This document shows, one piece after another, positions 2,657 to 57,914 of a stretch of 64,000 nt of DNA. Position numbers and translations under genes: made by a program. Every line of letters starts with the position of its first letter. Position 1 is the stretch's first letter. The notes beneath the pieces are model-generated. The model did not search any database. It had not been told where the DNA came from and was given only the letters and a program-made list of their open reading frames with translations. Origin of the DNA: Tabrizicola sp. (GTDB taxonomy: Bacteria; Pseudomonadota; Alphaproteobacteria; Rhodobacterales; Rhodobacteraceae); contig JAEULQ010000028.1 in the NCBI GenBank assembly GCA_016792685.1, positions 1-64,000 on the forward strand, read 5' to 3'.

Positions 2657-5164
2657 TCAGGTCCCCCGGGGTTTCGCCCGCAGCGTCGGTTCGGCCTGGG
2701 TCGGATCCTCGGGCCAGGGGTGGCGGGGATAGGCCCCGCGCATGTCCTTGCGCACGTCCGCGTAGGAGGTGGCCCAGAACCGGGGCAGGTCGGTCGTCAC
2801 CTGCACCGGGCGCTGGGCGGGCGACAGAAGCGTGATGCGCACCGGCATCCGCGCCTGGCCGACCACGGGATGCTGCGTCACCCCGAACATCTCCTGCAGC
2901 CGTACTTCGATGGCCGGCACTTCGCCCTCATAGTCGATCGGGATCTTGCGGCCCAAGGGTGTCTCGAAACTCCCCGGCACCAGCCGGTCCATCTCGGCCA
3001 GCCGGTCCCAACCGATCAGCCCCTGCAGCGCCGGTACCAGGTCCAGCGCCCGGATATCCGCTTCGGTCCTTACCCCCGCCAGATGCGGCAAGAGCCAGTC
3101 TTCGGCCGAGGCCAGCAACTCGGCATCCTCCACTCCCGGCCAGCCTTCGCCCCGCGCCAGCCGCGCCCGGGCGCGCAGCCGCCGCGCTGCCGCCGACCAG
3201 GGAAGGCCCAGGGTCCGAACACCGTCCAGCGCCGCCCGCGCCACGGCTTCCGTCGGGGCCTCCCAGGCCCGGTCGTCCAGGACCAGCGCCCCCAGCCGCT
3301 CCTGCCGCCGCGCCAGCACCTTGCCGTCCCGCTTCGACCATTCGCAAAGCTCGACCCAGACAATGCGGTCGGCGTAAAGCCCCCGCACCTCGGCCTCCGA
3401 GATCGCCACCGCCTGCCGCACGACCGCCTCGCGCGCGTCGCCGTCCAGGTCCGTCGCCACGATCAGCCGCGCGCCCGACAGGGGCAAGCCCGCCGCCATC
3501 GCCGCCCCCTTTCCCCCCGACAGCACCCAGCGCGGCGCCTCCCCCTTGCGGCGCAGCCCGATGCGGTCCGGATAGGCCAGCGCCGCCATCTCGGCCAGGC
3601 TGTAGCCCCCGGAAGCCCTCCCTCTCCCCCGCCCTCCGACCTGAATGGGGACAGAGCCGCCAGACCCCGCCGACCCGCCCTCGCGGGAAGGTGAGGGGGG
3701 TGGGGGGGCGTCGGCCATGCCCATGGCTGCCGCCGCCAGCCGTTTTGCCTCAACCCGGATGCGCTCGATCACCCCCCGGTCGGCCTCTGGCCCCGGTCGG
3801 CTCACCGCCTGCATCCGCAGGGCCAGATCCGGCCCAGCCCCGCGCAGCGGGTCACGCTCGGCCATCAGCGCGGCAAGACTTGCCGCCTCCGGCCCTGCCA
3901 CGGCCAGCATGTGACCAAGCCGGGGATGCAGGGGCAAGGCCGCCAGAACCCGGCCATGCGGCGTGATGTGCCCTTTCTCATCCAGCGCCCCGAGCCCCTG
4001 CAAAAGGCTGCGCGCCTCGGCCAGGGGTCCGGGAGGGGGCGGCGTCAGGAACGGCAGCTCCGCACCACCCCAAAGCGCCAGTTCCAGCGCCAGACCCGCC
4101 AGATCGGCCACCTCGATCTCGGCAGGAGGGTAGGGGGCCAATCCGCCCTCCTCCCCCTTCGTCCAAAGCCGGTAGCACACTCCGGCAGCCACCCGCCCGG
4201 CCCGGCCCCTGCGCTGGTCCGCCTCGGCACGTGTCACCCGTTCCGTCACCAGCCGCGACATGCCCGAGTTCGGGTCGAACCGCGCGCGCCGCGCCCGGCC
4301 CGCATCCACCACGACCCGGATATCCGGCAAGGTCAGCGAGGTCTCGGCAATCGAGGTCGCCAGCACCACCTTCCGCTCCTGGGCGGGCGCCAGAGCCGCC
4401 CGCTGCGCCGCAAAATCCATTGCCCCGTAAAGCGGCCGCACCGCCACGCCATCCAGGCCCGACAGCATCCCCTCCACCCGGCGGATTTCCCCTTCGCCGG
4501 GCAGGAAGACGAGGATACCCCCCTCCGTCTCTTCCAGCGCCTGCCGCACCGCCCCTGCGACAAGCGCCTCCAGCCGCAGCGAGGCATCGGGGGGGCGTGG
4601 CAACCACCGGGTCTCCACCGGATAGGCCTGCCCCGCCGAAGTCACCACCGGCGCATCCCCCATCAGCGCGGCCACCGGCCCCGCATCCAAAGTCGCCGAC
4701 ATGACCAGAAGCTTCAGGTCCTCGCGCAGCGCCCCCCGCACTTCCAGACACAGGGCCAGCCCCAGATCGGCATTCAGCGACCGCTCATGGAATTCGTCGA
4801 AGATCACCAGCCCGACGCCCGCAAGCTCCGGGTCCGACTGGATCATCCGGGTTAGGATCCCTTCCGTCACCACCTCGATCCGCGTCGCCTCCGACACTTT
4901 CGCCTCGCCCCGGATGCGATAGCCGACCGTCTGGCCCACCCGCTCGCCCAGGGTCTCGGCCATCCGCTCGGCCGAGGACCGAGCCGCCAGCCGCCTCGGC
5001 TCCAGCATCAGGATGCGCCCAGTGACCACGCCCCGCGCCAGCAGGTCCAAGGGCACCAGCGTCGTCTTCCCGGCCCCCGGCGGCGCCTGCAGCACAGCCA
5101 TGCCCCGCGATGCCAGCGCATCGGCAAGCTCAGGCAGGACAGCGGTTACCGGCAAGACGATCAT
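2657..5164 (-). CDS. hrpB: ATP-dependent RNA helicase HrpB
   Basis: DEAH/RHA-family helicase of the HrpB type, 835 aa, close to the family length. Walker A is APPGAGKTT (residues 27-35), the Walker B/DEAH box is DEFH (123-126), motif III is MSATLD, and motif VI includes QRRGRAGR. HA2-like and HrpB C-terminal domains follow. The start at 5164 (MIVLPVTAVL) was preferred to 5206 because family members begin close to the Walker A segment. Odd feature: residues about 482-519 form a Pro/Gly/Ser/Arg low-complexity stretch encoded by a GC-rich, partly palindromic DNA segment (3606-3720) in the variable linker before the C-terminal domain. The gene is divergent from meaB. The cellular role of HrpB is poorly known. 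Confidence 0.93.
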   Translation of the reverse strand: MIVLPVTAVLPELADALASRGMAVLQAPPGAGKTTLVPLDLLARGVVTGRILMLEPRRLAARSSAERMAETLGERVGQTVGYRIRGEAKVSEATRIEVVTEGILTRMIQSDPELAGVGLVIFDEFHERSLNADLGLALCLEVRGALREDLKLLVMSATLDAGPVAALMGDAPVVTSAGQAYPVETRWLPRPPDASLRLEALVAGAVRQALEETEGGILVFLPGEGEIRRVEGMLSGLDGVAVRPLYGAMDFAAQRAALAPAQERKVVLATSIAETSLTLPDIRVVVDAGRARRARFDPNSGMSRLVTERVTRAEADQRRGRAGRVAAGVCYRLWTKGEEGGLAPYPPAEIEVADLAGLALELALWGGAELPFLTPPPPGPLAEARSLLQGLGALDEKGHITPHGRVLAALPLHPRLGHMLAVAGPEAASLAALMAERDPLRGAGPDLALRMQAVSRPGPEADRGVIERIRVEAKRLAAAAMGMADAPPPPSPSREGGSAGSGGSVPIQVGGRGRGRASGGYSLAEMAALAYPDRIGLRRKGEAPRWVLSGGKGAAMAAGLPLSGARLIVATDLDGDAREAVVRQAVAISEAEVRGLYADRIVWVELCEWSKRDGKVLARRQERLGALVLDDRAWEAPTEAVARAALDGVRTLGLPWSAAARRLRARARLARGEGWPGVEDAELLASAEDWLLPHLAGVRTEADIRALDLVPALQGLIGWDRLAEMDRLVPGSFETPLGRKIPIDYEGEVPAIEVRLQEMFGVTQHPVVGQARMPVRITLLSPAQRPVQVTTDLPRFWATSYADVRKDMRGAYPRHPWPEDPTQAEPTLRAKPRGT

Positions 5165-5260
5165 GCCCCGCTTATGGCCCGCGCCCCACGCCCTGACCAG
5201 ACCCATGCATCCCGAAACCGCCTTTCCCCCCTGTCAACACATCCGCAATCCGGGTTAGAC

Positions 5261-5350
5261 CCGAGCCGATCTGCGCGTCCTTCACGCGCAGATCGGCGAG
5301 ACAAAGGGACTTCGCGCGGCACGCGCTCCTTTTGATAACCGCCCCAACCC
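5261..5350. repeat. Hairpin repeat family, copy A
   Basis: Intergenic element between hrpB and meaB. A perfect 14-bp stem (5265-5278 with 5284-5297) closes a CCTTC loop, is preceded by CCGA and followed by GAGACAAAGG. A second short hairpin (around 5313-5326) and the tail AACCGCCCCAACCC follow. Copies B (10870-10955) and C (9004-9070) keep the flanks, the pyrimidine loop and the second hairpin but have different, still fully paired, stem sequences. Could be an extragenic palindromic repeat or a structured RNA. Confidence 0.7.
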
Positions 5351-5429
5351 GCAGGCGGCGTCCCGAATGCTCCGCTTTGCCCTCTCGCCAAGCCTGCGCC
5401 GATCCGGCAGAAAGGTCGGGAACGGAGGC

Positions 5430-6413
5430 ATGATGGACACCGAAGACCGCGCCCGACTGATCCGCGCCGGCGACCGCCGGACACTGGCCCGTGCGATCAC
5501 GCTCGTGGAAAGCGCCCGGTCCGACCACCGGGCCGAGGCACTGGCGCTCCTCGACGCGCTGCGGGATCCCGACCGGCAGGCCCTGCGGATCGGCCTTTCG
5601 GGCACGCCCGGCGTGGGCAAGTCGACCTTCATCGAAGCCTTCGGACTGATGCTGACCGCGCAAGGCCTGAAGGTCGCCGTCCTCGCCGTCGACCCGTCCT
5701 CGGCCCGCTCCGGCGGCTCGATCCTCGGCGACAAGACCCGGATGGAGCGCCTCTCCCGCGAGCCCCTCGCCTTCATCCGCCCCTCGCCCAGCCAGACCCA
5801 GCTCGGCGGCGTCGCCCGCCGCACCCGCGAGGCCGTGGCCCTTTGCGAGGCCGCCGGCTTCGACGTCGTCCTGATCGAGACTGTCGGCGTCGGCCAGTCC
5901 GAAACTGTTGTCGCGGAACTCAGCGACCTTTTCCTGCTCCTCCTTGCTCCGGCAGGGGGGGACGAGCTGCAAGGCGTCAAGCGCGGCATCATGGAAATGG
6001 CCGACCTCATCTTGGTCAACAAGGCCGATGGCGACTTGAAACCGGCAGCACTCCGCACCGTCGCCGATTATGCGGGCGCCCTCCAGCTTCTCCGCCGCCG
6101 CCCGCAAGACCCGCCCGGCTTCCCCAAGGCCCTTCCAGTCTCGGCACTGGCGCAGGACGGGCTTGCCCGGGCGTGGGAAGAGATGCAGCTGCTGGTCAAC
6201 TGGCGAAAGGCGAACGGCCACTGGGCCCGCACCCGGGCCACCCAGGCGAAACACTGGTTCGAGGAAGAACTCCGCCAGGGTCTTCTGGCCGCCCTCGCAA
6301 AAGAGCCGCAGAAAGGCCTGATGGCCCGCTTCGGTGCCCGCGTCGCCGAGGGAGAGATGACGCCCGAGGCCGCCGCCGCCGAGATGCTGCGGCTCCTGGG
6401 CCGCCCTGCGTGA
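5430..6413 (+). CDS. meaB: Methylmalonyl-CoA mutase-associated GTPase MeaB
   Basis: G3E-family GTPase (ArgK/MeaB) that protects and gates cobalamin loading of methylmalonyl-CoA mutase, used in propionyl-CoA assimilation. About 327 aa. P-loop GTPGVGKST at residues 58-66; also VDPSSARSGGSILGDKTRM, ETVGVGQSE (switch/Walker B region) and NKAD base-recognition motif. Two adjacent ATGs at 5430 and 5433 follow GGAGG (5424-5428); 5433 has the better spacing, so the first Met may not be used. Its stop codon overlaps the GTG start of the next gene (GTGA), suggesting translational coupling. The mutase itself is not in the window. Confidence 0.93.
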   Translation: MMDTEDRARLIRAGDRRTLARAITLVESARSDHRAEALALLDALRDPDRQALRIGLSGTPGVGKSTFIEAFGLMLTAQGLKVAVLAVDPSSARSGGSILGDKTRMERLSREPLAFIRPSPSQTQLGGVARRTREAVALCEAAGFDVVLIETVGVGQSETVVAELSDLFLLLLAPAGGDELQGVKRGIMEMADLILVNKADGDLKPAALRTVADYAGALQLLRRRPQDPPGFPKALPVSALAQDGLARAWEEMQLLVNWRKANGHWARTRATQAKHWFEEELRQGLLAALAKEPQKGLMARFGARVAEGEMTPEAAAAEMLRLLGRPA

Positions 6414-7225
6414 GCCCTGCGCCCGCGCCCGAGCAGATCTTTGACGGCGACCTCCTCCGCGCCCGGCTCTGGATGCCCGAAGCGCCCACAACCGCACTTT
6501 ATGTGACGTTTCGCCAATGGGTGCCCGACCCGGGCACGTTTTCCGACCGCGGCCTTGTGCACCGCGCCCTGGCCCGCGGGCTTGCGCACCTGCATGTCCA
6601 GACGCGCTGGAACGACTGGTTCCTCAACGCCGAGACAACGGCACTGGAAGCGGCACTCGCCAGTCTCCGCGACCGCTTCCGTACGGCCCGCGCGCTCGGC
6701 TTCTCGATGGGCGGCTATGCGGCCCTGCGCTTCTCCTCGGCCCTGCGGCTGAATCAGGTTCTCCTGGTCTCGCCGCAAGTCTCGCTCGATCCCGCTATTG
6801 TGCCCACGGAAGACCGCTATCCCGAGGCGGCGGGATATGACCCGGTTCTGGGCGACCTGACCCGGCACTGTCGGCGCGACCTTGCCGGCGTGATCGTGCT
6901 TGACCCTTTCTACGCGCTCGACCTGACCCATGCCCGGCTCATCGCAAGCCTCGCGCCGGGTCTTGCCATCGCCAGGCTCGGCTTCGGCGGACACCCCGGC
7001 AGCGCGGCCATCGGACATGTCGGGGGCTTTCGCCACCTGCAGCAACTCAGCTTCTCGCCCAGGACCAGGGCGGGCGATGTCGTGCAGCTGCACCGGAGGC
7101 TGCGCGGCGGCTCGATGCGGTACTGGCGCGAAAGGGCCGAATACTGCCTGCGCAAGGGGCGCCTTGCGGCGGCAGCGGAAGCCATCGATCGCGCCGAAGC
7201 CCTGGCCGGCCTCTTGCCCGAGTAG
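6410..7225 (+). CDS. Alpha/beta-hydrolase-fold protein coupled to meaB
   Basis: Hypothetical protein of 271 aa. The GTG at 6410 overlaps the meaB stop by four bases and is the only start near the gene junction in this frame. It has a nucleophile-elbow motif GFSMGG (Ser99), placed as in alpha/beta hydrolases, with LGFSMGGYAAL preceded by a hydrophobic strand; a late HVGGF could carry the catalytic His. The C-terminal 60 residues are charged and look like a short helical repeat. Function is unknown; resemblance is to uncharacterised Rhodobacterales hydrolase-like proteins. Coupling to meaB suggests co-expression but not a defined role in acyl-CoA metabolism. Confidence 0.75.
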   Translation: MSPAPAPEQIFDGDLLRARLWMPEAPTTALYVTFRQWVPDPGTFSDRGLVHRALARGLAHLHVQTRWNDWFLNAETTALEAALASLRDRFRTARALGFSMGGYAALRFSSALRLNQVLLVSPQVSLDPAIVPTEDRYPEAAGYDPVLGDLTRHCRRDLAGVIVLDPFYALDLTHARLIASLAPGLAIARLGFGGHPGSAAIGHVGGFRHLQQLSFSPRTRAGDVVQLHRRLRGGSMRYWRERAEYCLRKGRLAAAAEAIDRAEALAGLLPE

Positions 7226-7239
7226 GATGGGCGATCCGC

Positions 7240-8133
7240 CTACCGCGTGAAGATCAGCGCCAGCCCCGCCACGGCCAATGCCGCGCCCGCCCAGCTTTTC
7301 GCGCTCGGCCGCTGACCGGTCCGCAGCCACAGAAGCGGCAGGATGATCACCGGCGACGTCGCCGACAGCGTCGCGATGATCCCGGTCTGCCCGCCCTGCA
7401 AGGCAAAAAGGAACAGCGTCATTCCCAGAAGCAGGCCGATCAGCGCCGTTGCCGCCGTCAGGGCAAGCATTTTCGCGGACAGCGACCGGGGCGCGGCAGG
7501 GGCAAAGGGCAGGGTTGCGGCAATCCCCATCGCCAGGCCCGACGCGCCCACCCGGATCAGCGAGCCGACATAGGGGTCAAGCCCCTCGGCCATCCAGGGC
7601 CGCGCGATCAGCGCCCCGGTGGCCTGGCCAAGCGCCGCGCCAAGGCCAAAGAGCACACCGATCCGCAAGCCGCCGCGCAGCTCTTCCAGCCGGTGCGCGC
7701 CCTCTGCCGGACGCCCCAGGATCGCCAGCGCCACGCCGGTGACCGTCACTGCAATGCCCAGTGCGGCCTGCCAGTCCAGCCGTTCGCCCAGGACAAGCCA
7801 GCCCAGCACCGCCGCCATCGGCGCGTTCAGCGCAAAGACCGCACCGGCCCTTCGGGGCCCCAGCCGCCCCACCGCCGCGAAATTCAGCGTGTCCCCCAGC
7901 AGGATGCCGATCACCCCGGACAGCGCAAGGATCGCGACAACCTGCCAGTCCGGCAGGGCCAGAGCCCCCGAGGCCAGCACGATCCCCGCCAGGAGAAGCG
8001 TCACGAAGACCTGCCGGATCAGGTTGAAATGAAAGGCCCCGATCGCCCGGATCGCATCCGAGGCGAGGATGCCCGTCGTCGCCCAGCAGGTGGCCGTGCC
8101 CAGGGCGGCAAGTTCGTGGATTGGAAAGGCCAT
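7240..8133 (-). CDS. EamA/DMT-family transporter
   Basis: Drug/metabolite transporter superfamily permease, 297 aa, with about ten hydrophobic helices in two homologous halves (EamA repeats), inner membrane. The start at 8133 (MAFPIHELAALGT) has GGGAGA a few bases upstream; longer readings add a non-hydrophobic Cys/Gly-rich tail and were rejected. Typical EamA features are the internal duplication and the conserved Gly/Pro in LGDTLNFAAVGRLGPRRAGAV-type loops. It is divergent from an ArsR-like regulator 137 bp away, which may control it. Substrate cannot be inferred. Confidence 0.9.
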   Translation of the reverse strand: MAFPIHELAALGTATCWATTGILASDAIRAIGAFHFNLIRQVFVTLLLAGIVLASGALALPDWQVVAILALSGVIGILLGDTLNFAAVGRLGPRRAGAVFALNAPMAAVLGWLVLGERLDWQAALGIAVTVTGVALAILGRPAEGAHRLEELRGGLRIGVLFGLGAALGQATGALIARPWMAEGLDPYVGSLIRVGASGLAMGIAATLPFAPAAPRSLSAKMLALTAATALIGLLLGMTLFLFALQGGQTGIIATLSATSPVIILPLLWLRTGQRPSAKSWAGAALAVAGLALIFTR

Positions 8134-8270
8134 GCGATCTCCCTCGGGCGGCAGAGCTTGCATGCCGCCCCCGCCAGCGCAACCCTGCCTGACCTGCCCG
8201 CCACAATGGTTCGGCCATTTCCGAACCATCCGTCATGGCAGTCCGGCCGCGCGGCTGCTATCCTTGACCC

Positions 8271-8954
8271 ATGTCCGAAAGCCCGAACATCGCGACCCTC
8301 GCCGCGCCCCTTGCCGATCCCGCCCGCGCCCGGATGGTCACGCTCCTGATGGATGGCCGCGCCCGCACGGTGACCGAACTCGGGCAGGCGACCGGGCTGA
8401 CCAAGGCCAGCGCCTCGGAACATGCGGCCAAACTCCTTGCGGCCGGCTTCCTGCGGGCGGAAAGGCAGGGCCGCCACAAATACCTCGCCCTCGCCAGCCC
8501 CGAGGTCGCCCGTCTGATCGAGGCGATGATGGCGCTCGCCCAGCCCGCACCCGGCGTCACAAAGCGCTTCGGTCCCCGCGACCCCGCGCTCCGCGAAGCG
8601 CGGCTTTGCTACAACCACCTGGCGGGCGCCCTTGGCGTCCACGCCTATCAAAGCCTGTCCGCCCGAGGCTTTCTCGCCCATGCTCCCGGTGGCCTCGACC
8701 TTACGCCCAAGGGCCACGCCTTCTGCCGGGATTTCGGCCTCGATGCCCAGGACCTCGCCCCCGCCCGCACGCCGCTCTGCCGCGACTGCCTTGACTGGAG
8801 CGAGCGGCAAAGCCACCTCGGCGGCCGTCTTGGCCGCCTTCTCCTCGCGCGGATGGAAAGCCTGAACTGGCTCCACCGCCGGGCCGAAAGCCGCGCCCTC
8901 TCGATCACCCCCGAAGGCCGCCGCGCCTTCGCGCTGACCTTTCCAGCCGGGTAG
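8271..8954 (+). CDS. ArsR-family winged-helix regulator
   Basis: Transcription factor of 227 aa, about twice the size of classical ArsR. Residues 1-85 form a winged helix-turn-helix: LADPARARMVTLLMDGRARTVTELGQATGLTKASASEHAAKLLAAGFL, matching the HTH_20/ArsR signature. The C-terminal half (from about residue 105) has Cys residues (CYNHL, FCRDFG, CRDCLDW) that could sense metals or redox, but this is an inference. It is transcribed divergently from the EamA transporter, so it is a candidate regulator of that gene. A repeat-rich region follows before rpmB. Confidence 0.85.
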   Translation: MSESPNIATLAAPLADPARARMVTLLMDGRARTVTELGQATGLTKASASEHAAKLLAAGFLRAERQGRHKYLALASPEVARLIEAMMALAQPAPGVTKRFGPRDPALREARLCYNHLAGALGVHAYQSLSARGFLAHAPGGLDLTPKGHAFCRDFGLDAQDLAPARTPLCRDCLDWSERQSHLGGRLGRLLLARMESLNWLHRRAESRALSITPEGRRAFALTFPAG

Positions 8955-8961
8955 CGCCCTC

Positions 8962-8994
8962 TTGCCTTTCACCTGGCACCAAATATCCCCTGCG
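8962..8994. repeat. AAATATCC-type intergenic repeat, copy 1
   Basis: Sequence of the pattern CCTTTCAYCTKKSMCMARATATCC lies just after the regulator's stop. Related copies are at 10793-10817 and, on the opposite strand, 41367-41393. In copies 1 and 2 a member of the hairpin family follows within 100 bp. Confidence 0.6.
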
Positions 8995-9003
8995 GAGCAA
9001 GAA

Positions 9004-9070
9004 CCGAGCCTGACGCGCGCCTTTCGCGCGTCGGGCGAGAGGAAAGACTTGCGGCTGCCAAGCCGCTCAA
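9004..9070. repeat. Hairpin repeat family, copy C
   Basis: CCGA is followed by a 12-bp stem (9008-9019 with 9025-9036, one U-G pair) around a CCTTT loop, then GAGAGGAAAG. A second hairpin, GCGGC-TGCCAA-GCCGC, ends in TC as in copies A and B. The stem sequence differs from the other copies while pairing is kept. Confidence 0.65.
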
Positions 9071-9100
9071 TTTCACTACCGTTGATCCCCGCGCCGCCGC

Positions 9101-9129
9101 TTGACGTCGTCCGGGATTCCCCGTACACG
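9101..9129 (+). promoter_or_regulatory. Probable housekeeping promoter of rpmB
   Basis: TTGACG (9101-9106) and TACACG (9124-9129) are separated by 17 bp, a good sigma-70-type arrangement about 70 nt upstream of the rpmB start. Confidence 0.5.
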
Positions 9130-9200
9130 CCCCCAATCGAATTCGAGGGCTGGGGATTCCCCGCCTTCCCCCGCTTTTGACGAATCGAAGGAACACCGCA

Positions 9201-9488
9201 ATGTCGCGCGTCTGCGAACTCACCGGCAAGGGCCCGATGACGGGGAACACCGTCAGCCACGCCAACAACAAGTCCCGCCGCCGGTTCCTCCCGAACCTGA
9301 ACGAGGTCACTCTGATCTCGGACGTGCTGGGCCAGTCGTTCAAGCTGCGCGTCACCGCTGCCGCGCTGCGCTCGGTCGACCACCGTGGCGGGCTTGACGC
9401 CTATCTCGCCAAGGCCAAGGACGAAGAGCTTTCGACCGCCGCCCAGAAGATCAAGAAGGACATCGCCAAGGCGCAAGCCTCGGCCTGA
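9201..9488 (+). CDS. rpmB: 50S ribosomal protein L28
   Basis: Large-subunit ribosomal protein bL28, 95 aa. Begins [20 protein letters not shown], the standard L28 N-terminus, with SRRRFLPNL and the C-terminal helix [16 protein letters not shown] typical of alphaproteobacterial L28. The start at 9201 was chosen because GAAGGA lies about 9 nt upstream and the N-terminus matches the family; an upstream ATG at 9177 adds eight residues without support. Monocistronic: promoter upstream and strong hairpin terminator at 9509-9543. Unlike many bacteria it is not next to rpmG, which is at 50.4 kb. Confidence 0.97.
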
Positions 9489-9508
9489 TCCTGTCTGGCA
9501 CAGATGCG

Positions 9509-9543
9509 AAAGGCCCCGCCTTCGGCATGAAGGCGGGGCCTTT
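9509..9543 (+). terminator. Rho-independent-type terminator of rpmB
   Basis: A 15-bp perfect stem (9509-9523 with 9529-9543) with a five-base GGCAT loop. The 5' arm starts AAAGGCCCCGCC and the 3' arm ends GGCGGGGCCTTT; only a short T run follows. Confidence 0.85.
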
Positions 9544-9585
9544 CGCGTTTGTATCGCTTGGCGGGCGATCCGCCCGCCGCCCGGG

Positions 9586-9894
9586 TTATCCGGCGCAATA
9601 GGCCTCGGCGGTCTGGCCAAAGCTCTTGTAGCGGTCCCAGAACGCGTCGTCCGACTTCGATTGCGACACCCAGGTCGCATGCGCCGATTCCGGGTCCTTG
9701 AAGAACTTGGCCGCCCGGCGTTGGTCACCGCCCGACAGGGTCATGTCGGCCGCCTGCTGGATGCAGCCGCACAGTGACCGGTTGCCGCCACGGTCCGACG
9801 CCATGCAGGCCCGTTCGATCGGCCCGGCCATCGCCGCAGCCGTCATGACCGGAAGGGACGCCGCCAGGACGGCGGCAAACAGTTTGGTTTTCAT
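9586..9894 (-). CDS. Small secreted Cys-containing protein
   Basis: Hypothetical exported protein of 102 aa. The start at 9894 gives a clean signal peptide (MKTKLFAAVLAASLPVMTAA, cleavage near AMA-GPI); the upstream ATG at 9936 would bury it. The mature part has four Cys (ACMAS, LCGCIQQ, YCAG), probably two disulfides, and an alpha-helical look (AADMTLSGGDQRRAAKFFKDP). Proteins of this form occur in Rhodobacterales without assigned function. It is convergent with rpmB; the rpmB terminator lies between them. Confidence 0.75.
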   Translation of the reverse strand: MKTKLFAAVLAASLPVMTAAAMAGPIERACMASDRGGNRSLCGCIQQAADMTLSGGDQRRAAKFFKDPESAHATWVSQSKSDDAFWDRYKSFGQTAEAYCAG

Positions 9895-10131
9895 GCTCTT
9901 CTGCCTCGTTGCCGGGCCCGGGAATGCCTGATGCATCCTCCGTCACCGGTCATTTTCTGCCGGATATATTGCCGCTTCCAAGCGTTTTTTTCAAGCCTGG
10001 CAGTGGTTTGGCGAAAAATCGCCGGGTTTCGCAACTGCTCGCGGCGCCTTTGCGCGCAGCCCACAAGATGCAGTAGGCTCGCGGCAGGGTCACGCCAGAC
10101 CCGGCCCTGCCCCCAAGACAGATGAGACGCC

Positions 10132-10782
10132 ATGCCGCATCCTCCACCCAGCCCGCGCACGCGCGCCCGCCGCCTGGCCTACAAGGCCGCCTATGACCGC
10201 GACACGATCCACGCGATCCTCGACGCGATGCCCGTCGCCCATATCGGCCATATCGTCGACGGCTTTCCCGTGGTTACCCCCACGCTCCAGTGGCGCGAGG
10301 GGGACAGGGTCTACTGGCACGGCTCCTCGGCCAGCCGGATGCAGAAACGTGCGGCAGGGGAAGAGGTCTGCCTCACCGTCACCCTGACCGACGGCATGGT
10401 CCTGGCCCGCTCCGGCCTGGAACACTCGGTCAACTACCGGTCGGTCATGGTCTTCGGCCGCGCCGAGCTGGTCGAAGGCGCTGCCGCCAAGGAAGCCCAT
10501 CTCCGCACCATGATGGAGCAGCTCTTCCCCGGCCGCTGGGAGAGCCTCCGCCCGATCACCGCCCAGGAACTCAAGGCCACCCGCATCCTGTCGCTGCCGC
10601 TGACCGAAGCGTCCGCCAAGATCGGCGCCGGGCCGCCCACCGACCCGCCCGAAGACCGCGCCTGGCCGGTCTGGGCCGGGGTCCTGCCGATCCGGCTGAC
10701 CATGGGCCCCCCGGAACCCGCTCCGGACCTGGCCCCCGGCATTCCGACCCCTGACCATGCCCGCACCTACCGGATCGGCTGA
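10132..10782 (+). CDS. Pyridoxamine 5'-phosphate oxidase family flavin-binding protein
   Basis: 216-aa split-barrel FMN-binding protein of the PNPOx-like family (COG3467, Nim-related). Motifs: AYDRDTIHAILDAMPVAHIGHI at the N-terminus, VVTPTLQWREGDRVYWHGSSASRM (FMN phosphate region) and NYRSVMVFGRAELV. Such proteins probably bind FMN or F420-like flavins and act on unknown small molecules; this specific role is not known. Start ATG 10132 is the first in the frame and the barrel begins soon after it. Standing alone between a secreted protein and a repeat-rich gap. Confidence 0.88.
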   Translation: MPHPPPSPRTRARRLAYKAAYDRDTIHAILDAMPVAHIGHIVDGFPVVTPTLQWREGDRVYWHGSSASRMQKRAAGEEVCLTVTLTDGMVLARSGLEHSVNYRSVMVFGRAELVEGAAAKEAHLRTMMEQLFPGRWESLRPITAQELKATRILSLPLTEASAKIGAGPPTDPPEDRAWPVWAGVLPIRLTMGPPEPAPDLAPGIPTPDHARTYRIG

Positions 10783-10792
10783 CCCCGCCACG

Positions 10793-10817
10793 CCCTTTCA
10801 TCTTTGCCCAGATATCC
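10793..10817. repeat. AAATATCC-type intergenic repeat, copy 2
   Basis: CCTTTCATCTTTGCCCAGATATCC begins 12 nt after the stop of the flavin-binding protein gene. Same family as 8962-8994 and 41367-41393. Confidence 0.6.
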
Positions 10818-10869
10818 TCGCCGAAGACGCAACATTCTGGCGTCATTGGTTCGAGCCATCATGTTGCAC

Positions 10870-10955
10870 CCGAGCCGCATCGCGTTCTTCACGCGATGCG
10901 GTGAGACAAAAGGAATGCGCGGCACGCGCTCAATCTGAAAACCGCCCCAACCCGG
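10870..10955. repeat. Hairpin repeat family, copy B
   Basis: CCGA, then a 12-bp stem (10874-10885 with 10891-10902, one G-U pair) around TCTTC, then GAGACAAAAGG, the GCGC-GGCAC-GCGC mini-hairpin and AACCGCCCCAACCC. Closest to copy A in the flanks but the stem sequence is different. Confidence 0.7.
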
Positions 10956-10967
10956 CGCTGGACCTGT

Positions 10968-11960
10968 TCAGGCGCTCCGCCGCATCCGCCGCGCCTTCAT
11001 CGCCTCATGCGCCTCCGGCGTGCCGTCGTGGAACGACCCGAACCAGCGATCCAGCGGAACCATTCCATCGGAATAGTTCACCTCGAAATACTTGTGGTGC
11101 AGGTAATGCGCATAATAGCTCGCCTCGAAGGTAGAGCTTTCGCCCAGCACCACCCGGTCAAAGCCGGTATGCCCCTGCGCCGGGGATACGCCCAGTCGCG
11201 AGGCCAGGTTGATCATGTGAACCGGATGGCCAGGGATCACGAAGAACAGCAGGATCGTCGAGAAATAGATCAGATGCTCGATCGGATGCATCGACAGACC
11301 TGACCAGGGGCCAGGGTTGATGTTCCGGTGATGCAGCTTGTGCGCGATCTCGTAGAGCGGCGAGACATGCAACAGCCGGTGGCAGAAGTAGAAGCCCACC
11401 TCATGGATCAGCGGAACCAGGAAGAAGACTGCGACGAACCAGACCGGACTTTCGCCAAACGTCACCATCGGCGCCCAGCCATTGGCATAGGCCCATAGGA
11501 GAGCCACCTCATAGGCCGTCCAGATCGGCACTCCGCTGACCAGCGTGTAGAACATGTTGTCCCAGGTCTGGTGCCCGAACAGGAACCCCGGGGACTTCTC
11601 CCGCGGGAATTGCCGGTTGTACTTGAACTGCGTTCCCTGCCGTTTCCAGGAATAAAGCCACAGATGCCAGGCGCCATAGACCAGAACGGCCAGCACTAGG
11701 TTGCGGACCAGAAGATAGGCAATCCAGCCCGGCGCCAAGGTTTTCGTGGTCTCAAGTCCGGGCGAGAACCAGGTCCACAGGACCAGCGCCATCAGCGCGT
11801 AGAACAGGTTCCACGGCAGGAAATACCCCGGAAACCCGAACAGCCACTTCACCAGCCGCTTCGGATCGGGTGGCCAGTCGAAGGCCGGCCCGTAGGAAAT
11901 AGGCCGGTTCGGCGTCCAGTGCCCCCGCGCGTCCTCTGTTCCATAGTCCCGATCGTCCAT
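10968..11960 (-). CDS. Sterol desaturase/fatty acid hydroxylase family protein
   Basis: Membrane di-iron hydroxylase of the fatty acid hydroxylase superfamily, 330 aa. Three His clusters are visible: HRLLH (about residue 198), HKLHHRN (about 216) and HYLHHKYFEVNY (about 291), matching the HX3-4H, HX2-3HH and HX2HH iron-ligand pattern. Several hydrophobic helices flank them. Probably oxidises a lipid (sterol, hopanoid, carotenoid or fatty acid); the substrate is unknown. RBS AAGGGG precedes ATG 11960. The gene is 88 bp downstream of the MBL-fold gene on the same strand. Confidence 0.9.
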   Translation of the reverse strand: MDDRDYGTEDARGHWTPNRPISYGPAFDWPPDPKRLVKWLFGFPGYFLPWNLFYALMALVLWTWFSPGLETTKTLAPGWIAYLLVRNLVLAVLVYGAWHLWLYSWKRQGTQFKYNRQFPREKSPGFLFGHQTWDNMFYTLVSGVPIWTAYEVALLWAYANGWAPMVTFGESPVWFVAVFFLVPLIHEVGFYFCHRLLHVSPLYEIAHKLHHRNINPGPWSGLSMHPIEHLIYFSTILLFFVIPGHPVHMINLASRLGVSPAQGHTGFDRVVLGESSTFEASYYAHYLHHKYFEVNYSDGMVPLDRWFGSFHDGTPEAHEAMKARRMRRSA

Positions 11961-28897: not shown

Positions 28898-28974
28898 TGG
28901 CGGGCCCAGAAGGACTCGAACCCTCAACCTCGGACTTAGAAGGTCCTTGCTCTATCCAGTTGAGCTATGAGCCC
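28898..28974 (-). tRNA. tRNA-Arg (anticodon TCT)
   Basis: 77 nt on the minus strand with encoded CCA. Acceptor GGGCTCA pairs with TGGGCCC; D-stem GCTC/GAGC; anticodon loop CTTCTAA gives TCT, reading AGA; T-arm GAGGG-TTCGAGT-CCTTC. The 27-43 pair is A-G, the only mismatch seen. A palindrome CTTTTCGAAAAG lies downstream at about 28883-28894 and may be a terminator. Confidence 0.95.
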
Positions 28975-47960: not shown

Positions 47961-48376
47961 CCGCGCGGAGGGCTGGATGGCCGCGGGGCAAGCCCCGAGG
48001 AAAGTCCGGACTCCCGTTGGCAAGGGTGCCGGGTAACGCCCGGCGGGGGCAACCCCAGGGAAAGCGCCACAGAGAAGAGACTGCCCTGCTGTTTGAGAAG
48101 GTTCGCCTTCGGCTTGGCAGGGCGATGGTGAAACGGTGGGGTAAGAGCCCACCGCGGGACTGGCAACAGGACCGGCACGGCAAGCCCCACCCGGAGCAAT
48201 GCCAAATAGGGGCCTCGCGCGGGGGTCGGTCGGGAAACCGATACCGCCCGCAGGGACGCCAACGCCCGAGAGGCCCGGGTTGGCAGCTTGACCGCCGTGG
48301 CAACACGGTTGGCAGAGGAATGGTCATCCAGAGGCGAAAGCCTTGGACAGAATCCGGCTTACAGGCTCTCCGCGCA
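47961..48376 (+). ncRNA. rnpB: RNase P RNA, type A
   Basis: Catalytic RNA of tRNA 5' maturation. Universal elements: GAGGAAAGTCCGGACTC (P4 5' strand and CR-I) near the 5' end and ACAGAATCCGGCTTACA (P4 3' strand) near the 3' end; the 5' GCGCGGAG pairs with 3' CTCCGCGC to form P1. ACAGAGA-like and GGTAAGAGCCCACCG (P10/11) segments are present. About 416 nt, normal for alphaproteobacteria. Ends are approximate. Confidence 0.97.
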
Positions 48377-48426
48377 TCCATTTTCTCGCTGGTTCCCTTC
48401 GGACCCTCGATCACGTTCGCGTGCTA

Positions 48427-57260: not shown

Positions 57261-57302
57261 CGTCAGGTATTCCGGCCCTTTTCCGTCCCAAGCCCAGGAG
57301 GC

Positions 57303-57914
57303 ATGGTCGGCGTCGAAATCGACCGGAGTCCCGCCTTGCGCAGCCTTGCCGCCCTTTCCTTGTCCTTGTGTCTCGCCCTGCCCGCTGCGGCTCAGATGGT
57401 CCTCTCGGAAGCCAGTGGCAACTGGGCCGGCGCGTCCAATCAGGGGTTCTATTTCACGGCCCAACTGGTGCAGGAACAGGACCGAGTGGGCCTTCTGATC
57501 TGGAATGGCAATGAAAGCGTGCCTACTGCAGCGGGAACCCCGGAATTCGAGAACCGAGAGATCGACCTTGCCGCTTTTGCCACCCGTCAGGCGTTGGAAG
57601 TGGTCGAGAGCGCAAATGGCAGCATCCTGCAGGTCGTGGTCGAGTTTGCCGACGAGGACGCCGAGGGGCGGTCGGTCACCCAGATCCAGCGGATCGACGG
57701 GCAGTACACGGTTACCGGCTACTATCACCTCTCAAGGTTCTACAACCCCGGCGGCGAACCCTATTCCTACGAATGTGACGTGGACCTGTGGAACATGATT
57801 GCGATCGACAACGGCCGGCAGCGCCAGCTTGAGCCGGTCGGGTTCGAGGCGCTGAACGCCAGCGATTGGACCTGGGGTGCGGCCTTCGACCGGGGCTTCT
57901 GCACCCGGAGCTAG
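57303..57914 (+). CDS. Hypothetical exported protein
   Basis: 203 aa if ATG 57303 is used; a TTG at 57336 gives a better signal peptide (MRSLAALSLSLCLALPAAAQ) with GGAG seven bases upstream, while AGGAGG is only one base from ATG 57303. The mature region looks beta-rich (GFYFTAQLVQEQDRVGLLIWNGN, DGQYTVTGYYHLSRF), with two Cys near the end (ECDVDLW, FCTRS). No family recognised. Confidence 0.65.
   Translation: MVGVEIDRSPALRSLAALSLSLCLALPAAAQMVLSEASGNWAGASNQGFYFTAQLVQEQDRVGLLIWNGNESVPTAAGTPEFENREIDLAAFATRQALEVVESANGSILQVVVEFADEDAEGRSVTQIQRIDGQYTVTGYYHLSRFYNPGGEPYSYECDVDLWNMIAIDNGRQRQLEPVGFEALNASDWTWGAAFDRGFCTRS

What the first reader, a model, noticed from the sequence alone, without database searches (positions are those of the whole stretch)
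5261..10955. Three intergenic hairpins with different but still perfectly paired stems
Copies at 5261-5350, 9004-9070 and 10870-10955 share CCGA before the stem, a closing GCC/GGY, a five-base pyrimidine loop (CCTTC, TCTTC, CCTTT), GAGA after it and a second small hairpin. The stems (14, 12 and 12 bp) have unrelated sequences yet pair throughout. This covariation in three copies within 6 kb argues for selection on structure, either an RNA element or a mobile palindromic repeat.
Basis: seen in the sequence. Interest (0 to 1): 0.7.

Follow-up and report, generated by a model that had tools for sequence, protein, structure and literature searches.

The report
Dispersed two-hairpin repeats at gene ends
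The three hairpins belong to an old family of roughly 45 scattered copies in this bacterium's genome, whose stems change sequence between copies and between species yet stay paired, which suggests that the folded shape does something useful near the ends of genes.

Summary
The three hairpins are 3 of about 45 copies in this genome of an ~86-nt unit with two hairpins (47 model hits at E<=1). All 32 genomes searched in the genus (Tabrizicola in the GTDB sense) have 20-58 hits. Relatives at E<=1e-8 occur in 22 other genera of the family; none of the sampled genomes outside the family reaches that. Arms of one copy pair at 9.6 of 10 positions, swapped arms at 5.4. At one orthologous site, upstream of meaB, five stem pairs changed on both sides in place. 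In long stems G.U outnumbers A.C 14:1, so one strand seems to be the folded one; hairpin 2 does not show this. Copies are rare between divergent genes, often abut stop codons, and 12 of 12 close pairs are head to head. The layout is REP/BIME-like, but no REP-type transposase passed its cut-off and no two copies in two genomes exceed 87% identity. Best reading: an old REP/BIME-like repeat kept for its structure, probably acting in RNA near gene ends. Transcription, function and mode of spread are untested.

The parts
5221..5258 (+). worn remnant of the 5' module (CCTTTC... but no ATATCC left)
   Evidence: read against the orthologous meaB sites, 8 of 9 of which keep a CAAATATCC-like module here
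5259..5347 (+). copy 1 of the repeat unit, between hrpB (2657-5206, -) and meaB (5433-6413, +)
   Evidence: model R1, 85.0 bits; Pfam HrpB_C and MeaB
5265..5297 (+). hairpin 1 of copy 1, 14 bp, flanked by tandem G.A (5263-5264 with 5298-5299)
5314..5326 (+). hairpin 2 of copy 1, 5 bp
8965..8988 (+). 5' module of copy 2, CCTTTCACCTGGCACCAAATATCC
8991..8999 (+). small hairpin 0 of copy 2, TGC-GGA-GCA
   Evidence: read from sequence; its stem varies between copies; three pairs only, not tested
9002..9087 (+). copy 2 of the repeat unit, between an HTH-protein gene (8271-8954, +) and a ribosomal protein L28 gene (9201-9488, +)
   Evidence: model R1, 78.0 bits; Pfam
9008..9036 (+). hairpin 1 of copy 2, 12 bp with one T.G
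9051..9066 (+). hairpin 2 of copy 2, 6 bp
10794..10817 (+). 5' module of copy 3, CCTTTCATCTTTGCCCAGATATCC
10829..10867 (+). extra hairpin of copy 3 with a TTGGTTCGA loop
   Evidence: read from sequence; 2 further copies with such a loop among 233
10868..10950 (+). copy 3 of the repeat unit, between convergent genes (10132-10782, +, Pyridox_ox_2; 10968-11960, -, FA_hydroxylase); its 3' end is 17 nt from the stop codon of the latter
   Evidence: model R1, 82.6 bits; Pfam; distance
10874..10902 (+). hairpin 1 of copy 3, 12 bp with one G.T
10917..10929 (+). hairpin 2 of copy 3, 5 bp

Best explanation
The three hairpins are copies of one old, dispersed, REP/BIME-like repeat family of Rhodobacteraceae that is kept for its structure. 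Shown by computation: each copy is a unit of about 86 nt (CCGAG, hairpin 1, GAGACAAAAGGCTTG, hairpin 2, CTCAATTTGAAAACCGCCC), most often behind a module ending in CAAATATCC; stems stay paired through compensatory change; copies sit between genes, are rare between divergent genes, and end at stop codons of opposing genes; close pairs are head to head. Fairly supported: the strand given here is the folded one. Inferred: the unit works mainly as an RNA structure near transcript 3' ends and between operon genes (termination or insulation against read-through, protection of mRNA ends, ribosome clearance near stop codons), spread long ago by an unknown route, and is now mostly inherited vertically.
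For: 68 copies of two genomes: 95.7% of cells paired, 13 of 16 pairs with changes on both sides, covariation 0.261 against 0.083 shuffled. meaB site: 5 pairs and 12 cells changed on both sides. cobN-cobG site: copy in 22 of 25 loci in the genus, with looped and fully paired stems replacing each other. Layout in 69 placed copies of two genomes: 21 convergent, 41 tandem, 7 divergent; 36 of 41 with an opposing downstream gene end within 25 nt of its stop; background gaps 17, 83, 55. 12 of 12 neighbours within 400 nt head to head; a terminator-like palindrome in the middle of 3 of the 5 pairs printed in full. Best identity between copies 87% in each of two genomes.
Against: No expression data. Orientation among tandem genes is balanced (own 12 to 11, G005 9 to 9), so many copies would be transcribed, if at all, as the reverse complement. 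At meaB the copy seems to lie between two divergent promoters (conserved blocks read by eye) and may be in no mRNA. Hairpin 2 gave 5 G.T to 15 A.C, against a + strand reading of that hairpin. Further standard pair types at meaB were no more than in shuffles (9 against 10.4). No clear U tract follows hairpin 1 on either strand, by eye.
Confidence: 0.5

Rival explanations
1. A family of small-RNA genes: each copy is its own short transcript from the + strand, acting in trans.
For: One-strand signs: G.U 14 to A.C 1 in stems of 8 or more pairs and purine-rich loops. Loose orientation to neighbouring genes. At meaB the copy seems to lie outside both gene transcripts (by eye). Linker and tail are conserved outside the stems.
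Against: No sigma-70-like promoter was found in window 5000-11200 (0 found, 0.4 expected by chance; a strict consensus that fits this group poorly). The conserved upstream module is one arm of a terminator-like palindrome in other genera, and in the window's copy 1 it is worn while hairpin 1 is perfect. No Rfam match.
Confidence: 0.2
2. A non-autonomous mobile element whose folded single-stranded DNA is recognised by an unidentified transposase or recombinase; the structure is what that enzyme reads.
For: Dispersed copies, head-to-head pairs, one-strand structure, presence in 9 of 30 meaB loci needing at least 5 gains or losses on the MeaB tree.
Against: No Y1 transposase over the cut-off in 32 genomes, two weak hits below it. 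No near-identical copies. Compensatory change goes on at single orthologous sites after insertion.
Confidence: 0.2
3. No function: quasi-palindrome correction by template switching during replication keeps the stems perfect, so matching arms arise without selection.
For: Several perfect stems look like the common GGTT/AGA form with the 5' arm rewritten as the complement of the 3' arm (GCGCAGA kept; by eye).
Against: Wobble and mismatch intermediates are present, and G.U exceeds A.C in hairpin 1, which correction does not predict. Looped non-Watson-Crick arms persist in other genera. Linker and tail are conserved too.
Confidence: 0.1

Closest known systems
REP elements and BIMEs of enterobacteria and pseudomonads, with RAYT transposases (passages of PMC2817692; passages of PMC12306157)
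   Same: Dispersed intergenic palindromes, doublets in inverted orientation, many close to stop codons.
   Different: Longer unit with two hairpins, foot CCGAG instead of GTAG/GTGG, no Y1 transposase over the cut-off in the genus, 20-58 hits per genome, copies much diverged, stems replaced wholesale.
REP elements of Sinorhizobium meliloti (passages of PMC2873474)
   Same: Alphaproteobacterial dispersed palindromes; 26 REP elements there are reported with transcriptional activity.
   Different: Sequences were not compared here.
Rhodobacterales structured-RNA candidates HRC-8-4 and uORFC-8-2 (PMC8632094: abstract, outline, section 22 and passages)
   Same: Structured intergenic motifs restricted to the order.
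   Different: Each is tied mainly to one gene context (cco operons, cysS); this family is dispersed over many contexts. Their sequences were not compared here.
Intrinsic terminators
   Same: GC-rich hairpins after stop codons; the central palindrome and hairpin 2 are terminator-like in places.
   Different: Hairpin 1 is not followed by a U tract on either strand (by eye), and copies also lie inside the cob cluster between genes of one direction.

Membership tests
RAYT-type REP element | Y1 (IS200/IS605-type) REP transposase in the genome | tested here: not met
   PF01797: 0 in the own genome, about 89% complete; 0 of 32 genus genomes over the cut-off, 2 weak hits below it; 5 of 14 control genomes ring
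RAYT-type REP element | GTAG/GTGG head next to the palindrome | tested here: not met
   The foot is CCGAG in the copies aligned; head sequences of REPs from passages of PMC2817692
RAYT-type REP element | Many identical or nearly identical copies | tested here: not met
   Best pair 87% in 43 own and in 29 G005 copies, medians 65% and 72%
BIME-like compound repeat | Units paired in inverted orientation around a spacer | tested here: met
   12 of 12 neighbours within 400 nt head to head; most copies are single
BIME-like compound repeat | Intergenic, near gene 3' ends, rare between divergent genes | tested here: met
   21 convergent, 41 tandem, 7 divergent of 69 placed; background 17, 83, 55
Structured RNA with conserved secondary structure | Covariation beyond shuffled and slid controls | tested here: met
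   related sequences can beat such shuffles, the slid controls are lower too
Structured RNA with conserved secondary structure | Transcribed | not testable with these tools
   no RNA-seq
Known Rfam family | Score above a gathering threshold | tested here: not met
   whole window: only RNase P and tRNA; copy 1 region: no family near its threshold
Intrinsic terminator | GC hairpin followed at once by a U tract | tested here: inconclusive
   9 sites against 4.2 (sd 2.1) expected in 5000-11200, hairpin 2 among them on both strands

The most novel reading that the evidence does not exclude
A genome-wide family of dozens of structured RNA modules, each kept folded at its own site by compensatory evolution over the age of a genus and dispersed without a recognised transposase: an RNA-level counterpart of BIMEs in which Watson-Crick arms, a GGUU/AGA internal loop and tandem G.A helices are interchangeable ways to build one required shape, read by an unknown factor.
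Probability: 0.3. Interest if true: 0.75.

Novelty: new variant of a known kind. Interest (0 to 1): 0.55.

Why it matters
Bacterial intergenic repeats are often seen as leftovers of mobile elements. Here is a family in which compensatory change at single sites and interchangeable non-Watson-Crick helices can be read from sequence alone. That makes the old question whether REP-like repeats are selected for a function directly testable in culturable, non-pathogenic bacteria, and it gives a covariance model for dozens of elements per genome that Rfam does not hold.

Tried and rejected
rRNA operon: a +/- pair of copies 5.7 kb apart in several congeners looked like an rRNA operon. Rfam found no RNA in the eight stretches fetched, and the genes between are a cobalamin cluster (Pfam CobN, CbiC, CbiJ, CbiG_C, TP_methylase).

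B12 element: copies near meaB and in the cob cluster suggested a cobalamin link. Rejected because the other two window copies lie near unrelated genes and no riboswitch family matched the window or the eight stretches. I did not test gene functions genome-wide.

5' module as promoter: its layout does not fit sigma-70 (by eye), and in other genera it is one arm of a longer palindrome.

Replication-strand bias: GC skew of 20 sampled stretches of G005 gave no clear replichores, so it was not tested.

Strand test: plain folding was confounded by the conserved internal loop and gave lower energies for the reverse strand (-35.2 against -32.7 kcal/mol). A first rule-based count gave 18 G.T to 9 A.C, p=0.12, with spurious hairpins in it. 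The count restricted to hairpins centred in the unit gave 14 to 1 at 8 or more pairs and 18 to 4 at 6 or more. The restriction was made. Hairpin 2 gave 5 to 15; I think flanking constant letters cause that, but did not show it.

Other empty results: plasmids and phages. My paper searches listed no paper that, from titles and abstract starts, describes this family.

Rows dropped: the four weakest own hits (C68, C76:21669, C27:63363, C101) from all counts. L106 from the pair count, because the alignment shifted it by a column. In one search my bracket string put two of the five hairpin-2 pairs off register, so its 81.8% overall is too low. Three copies called 'inside a gene' were left out. The two cob copies of G005 are not in its 29, being counted with other sets.
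Full report
WHAT IS THERE. The three hairpins exist as described. Two carry one G.T pair each, and the pairs next to the loop are CGCG-like in all three, so the stems are not wholly unrelated. A pattern search of the own genome gave 16 matches, of which I judged 11 to be true copies by their downstream sequence. They align as one unit of about 86 nt: CCGAG, hairpin 1, GAGACAAAAGGCTTG, hairpin 2, CTCAATTTGAAAACCGCCC. A covariance model from these 11 (R1) finds 47 hits at E<=1 in the own genome, of which I used the best 43. The window copies score 85.0, 78.0 and 82.6 bits; they were among the 11 used to build the model.

THREE KINDS OF ARM. Hairpin 1 comes as (a) a paired stem of variable sequence, as in the window; (b) GCCGGTT-stem-AGAGGC, a recurrent internal loop with a variable upper stem; (c) CGAGGAGGAGG..CCGACGACGAG, which pairs only if tandem G.A pairs are counted. 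The outer CCGAG/CGAGA reads as a tandem G.A too. At that place 41 of 53 long stems have GA opposite GA, and a few have Watson-Crick partners instead (TC/GA 3, TT/AA 1; examples L116, L106, L040). That the G.A pairs form is inference from general knowledge. A crude classing of 161 copies gave 85 of type b, 16 of type c and 60 others, many of type a.

HOW WIDE. The genus is Tabrizicola in the GTDB sense, by inference from names: an exact 20-mer of the unit falls in 99 stretches, and 67 of the 80 listed are titled Tabrizicola, Rhodobacter or Rhodobacteraceae; the others include Gemmobacter, Fuscovulum, unnamed bins and one 'Dadabacteria' bin. All 32 genomes of the genus, own included, have 20-58 hits at E<=0.01 (140 candidates scored each). 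In the family, 134 of 295 genomes have a hit at E<=0.01, mostly single and weak. By my count of the table, 24 reach 1e-8: two of the own genus and 22 of other genera (15 candidates scored each, so a lower bound). Of 190 genomes drawn from the class, 10 outside the family reach 1e-4 and none of them 1e-8. No Rfam family; no match in plasmids or phages.

SELECTION ON STRUCTURE. Over 68 copies of two genomes, 95.7% of cells pair, 13 of 16 pairs have changes on both sides, and the covariation score is 0.261 against 0.083 shuffled and at most 0.030 slid. That alignment is fitted to the model and leans towards it. In 54 distinct stems, chosen for at least 8 Watson-Crick pairs, the arms pair at 9.61 of 10 positions with their own partner and at 5.42 with another copy's arm; for hairpin 2 it is 4.45 against 2.00 of 5 in 64 distinct arm pairs. 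The own values are high partly by that choice; the swap shows that the sequences differ. The clearest case is one site. Upstream of meaB a copy occurs in 9 of 30 loci of the genus. In 8 of the 9, five pairs changed on both sides (8 of 500 shuffles as high) in 12 cells (0 of 500), with a covariation score of 0.227 against 0.122 (0 of 500) and at most 0.071 when slid. The number of further pair types was not raised (465 of 500 shuffles as high). Related sequences can exceed such shuffles without structure. The nine share the hairpin 2 core, so I read the changes as having happened in place. On a MeaB tree of 28 genomes the presence of the copy needs at least 5 changes (7.7 in shuffles), so gains or losses have occurred. 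At a second site, cobN-cobG, a copy is found in 22 of 25 loci; in two of the three misses (L087, L099) the contig ends inside the gene. There the GGTT/AGA form and fully or nearly fully paired forms replace each other (L082, L086, L089).

WHICH STRAND. Single non-Watson-Crick pairs inside stems with at least 8 Watson-Crick pairs are G.T or T.G 14 times and A.C or C.A once, in 72 distinct stems (p=0.001; 18 to 4 at 6 or more pairs). Against this: an earlier, less restricted count gave 18 to 9 (p=0.12), and hairpin 2 gave 5 to 15. Four of the 14 come from the meaB lineage and two from one stem, so they are not independent. Split by gene context, 8 of the 14 lie between genes of the same direction as the unit and 2 between genes of the opposite direction. 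With the purine-rich loops of hairpin 1, I take the + strand of the unit to be the folded one, as RNA or single-stranded DNA, with moderate confidence.

WHERE IT SITS. Genes were called with a codon-usage script of my own. Of 69 placed copies in two genomes (41 of 43 own; 28 of 29 of G005, from the best 30 of 52 hits), 21 lie between convergent, 41 between tandem and 7 between divergent genes. Background gaps of 100-600 nt in the fetched loci are 17, 83 and 55. Where the downstream gene opposes the unit, the unit ends within 25 nt of its stop codon in 36 of 41 cases. Among tandem genes orientation is balanced: own 12 to 11, G005 9 to 9. In 233 distinct copies, 12 of 12 neighbours within 400 nt are head to head. 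Of the five pairs printed in full, three keep a central palindrome such as GGGATATATGGGCAAAGATGAA..TTCATCTTTGCCCAAATATCCC, of which the usual 5' module CCTTTCAYCTTTGCCCAAATATCC looks like one arm; in several copies of other genera both arms are present. A loose pattern finds the module's end in 194 of 233 copies and both arms in 35.

MECHANISM. This is the anatomy of a REP/BIME-like compound repeat: inverted pairs at gene ends, some with a terminator-like centre. The most likely role is as an RNA structure near 3' ends and between operon genes, limiting read-through and shaping mRNA ends or ribosome clearance. E. coli REPs within 15 nt of a stop codon are reported to stall ribosomes (passages of PMC12306157). 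Shown here: family, covariation, layout. Supported but contested: the strand. Inferred: any RNA-level role and the old spread. Against it: at meaB the copy seems to lie between two divergent promoters (conserved blocks by eye), and balanced orientation means that many copies are transcribed, if at all, as the reverse complement. That is why small-RNA and single-stranded-DNA readings keep 0.2 each.

MEMBERSHIP. I do not file it as a RAYT-type REP: no Y1 transposase over the cut-off in 32 genomes (two weak hits below it), no GTAG foot, and no near-identical copies (best pair 87% in both genomes), whereas passages of PMC2817692 list REPs with many identical or one-mismatch copies in most genomes of its table. 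REPs of S. meliloti are partly transcribed (passages of PMC2873474), so such transcripts are possible. The Rhodobacterales motifs of PMC8632094 (abstract, outline, section 22 and passages) are each tied mainly to one gene context; their sequences were not compared. My searches listed no paper that describes this family, judged from titles and abstract starts; the library holds open-access papers only. PMC2267715 and PMC1590033, on stem-loop families in bacteria, were seen as listings only.

VERDICT. Real, much larger than reported, and kept for its structure as far as sequence can show. New variant of a known kind (REP/BIME-like); function, transcription and mode of spread open.

Noticed in passing
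10829-10867; also upstream of the copies in L084 and L171: A further hairpin with a tRNA T-loop-like TGGTTCGAG loop and different stems sits just before the repeat unit in 3 of 233 copies.
   Followed up: partly
meaB upstream region in L111, L125, L126: Species without the repeat unit there carry another long palindrome with an AAAATTTTTCG..CGAAAAATTTT core in the same gap.
   Followed up: no
meaB upstream region in L106, L112, L119 against L100, L118: The gene to the left of the copy differs between species (by eye), while the copy stays linked to meaB.
   Followed up: no
41387 (- strand): A CTTTCATCTTTGCTCAAATATCC module followed by a G-rich hairpin but no repeat unit.
   Followed up: no
57302-57397 (- strand): Weak model hit (14.9 bits, E 0.005), probably chance.
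   Followed up: no
9505-9547: Strong 20-pair terminator-like hairpin with T tail just after the L28 gene.
   Followed up: no
47965-48377; 28898-28974 (- strand): RNase P RNA class A (265.6 bits) and tRNA-Arg (tct).
   Followed up: no
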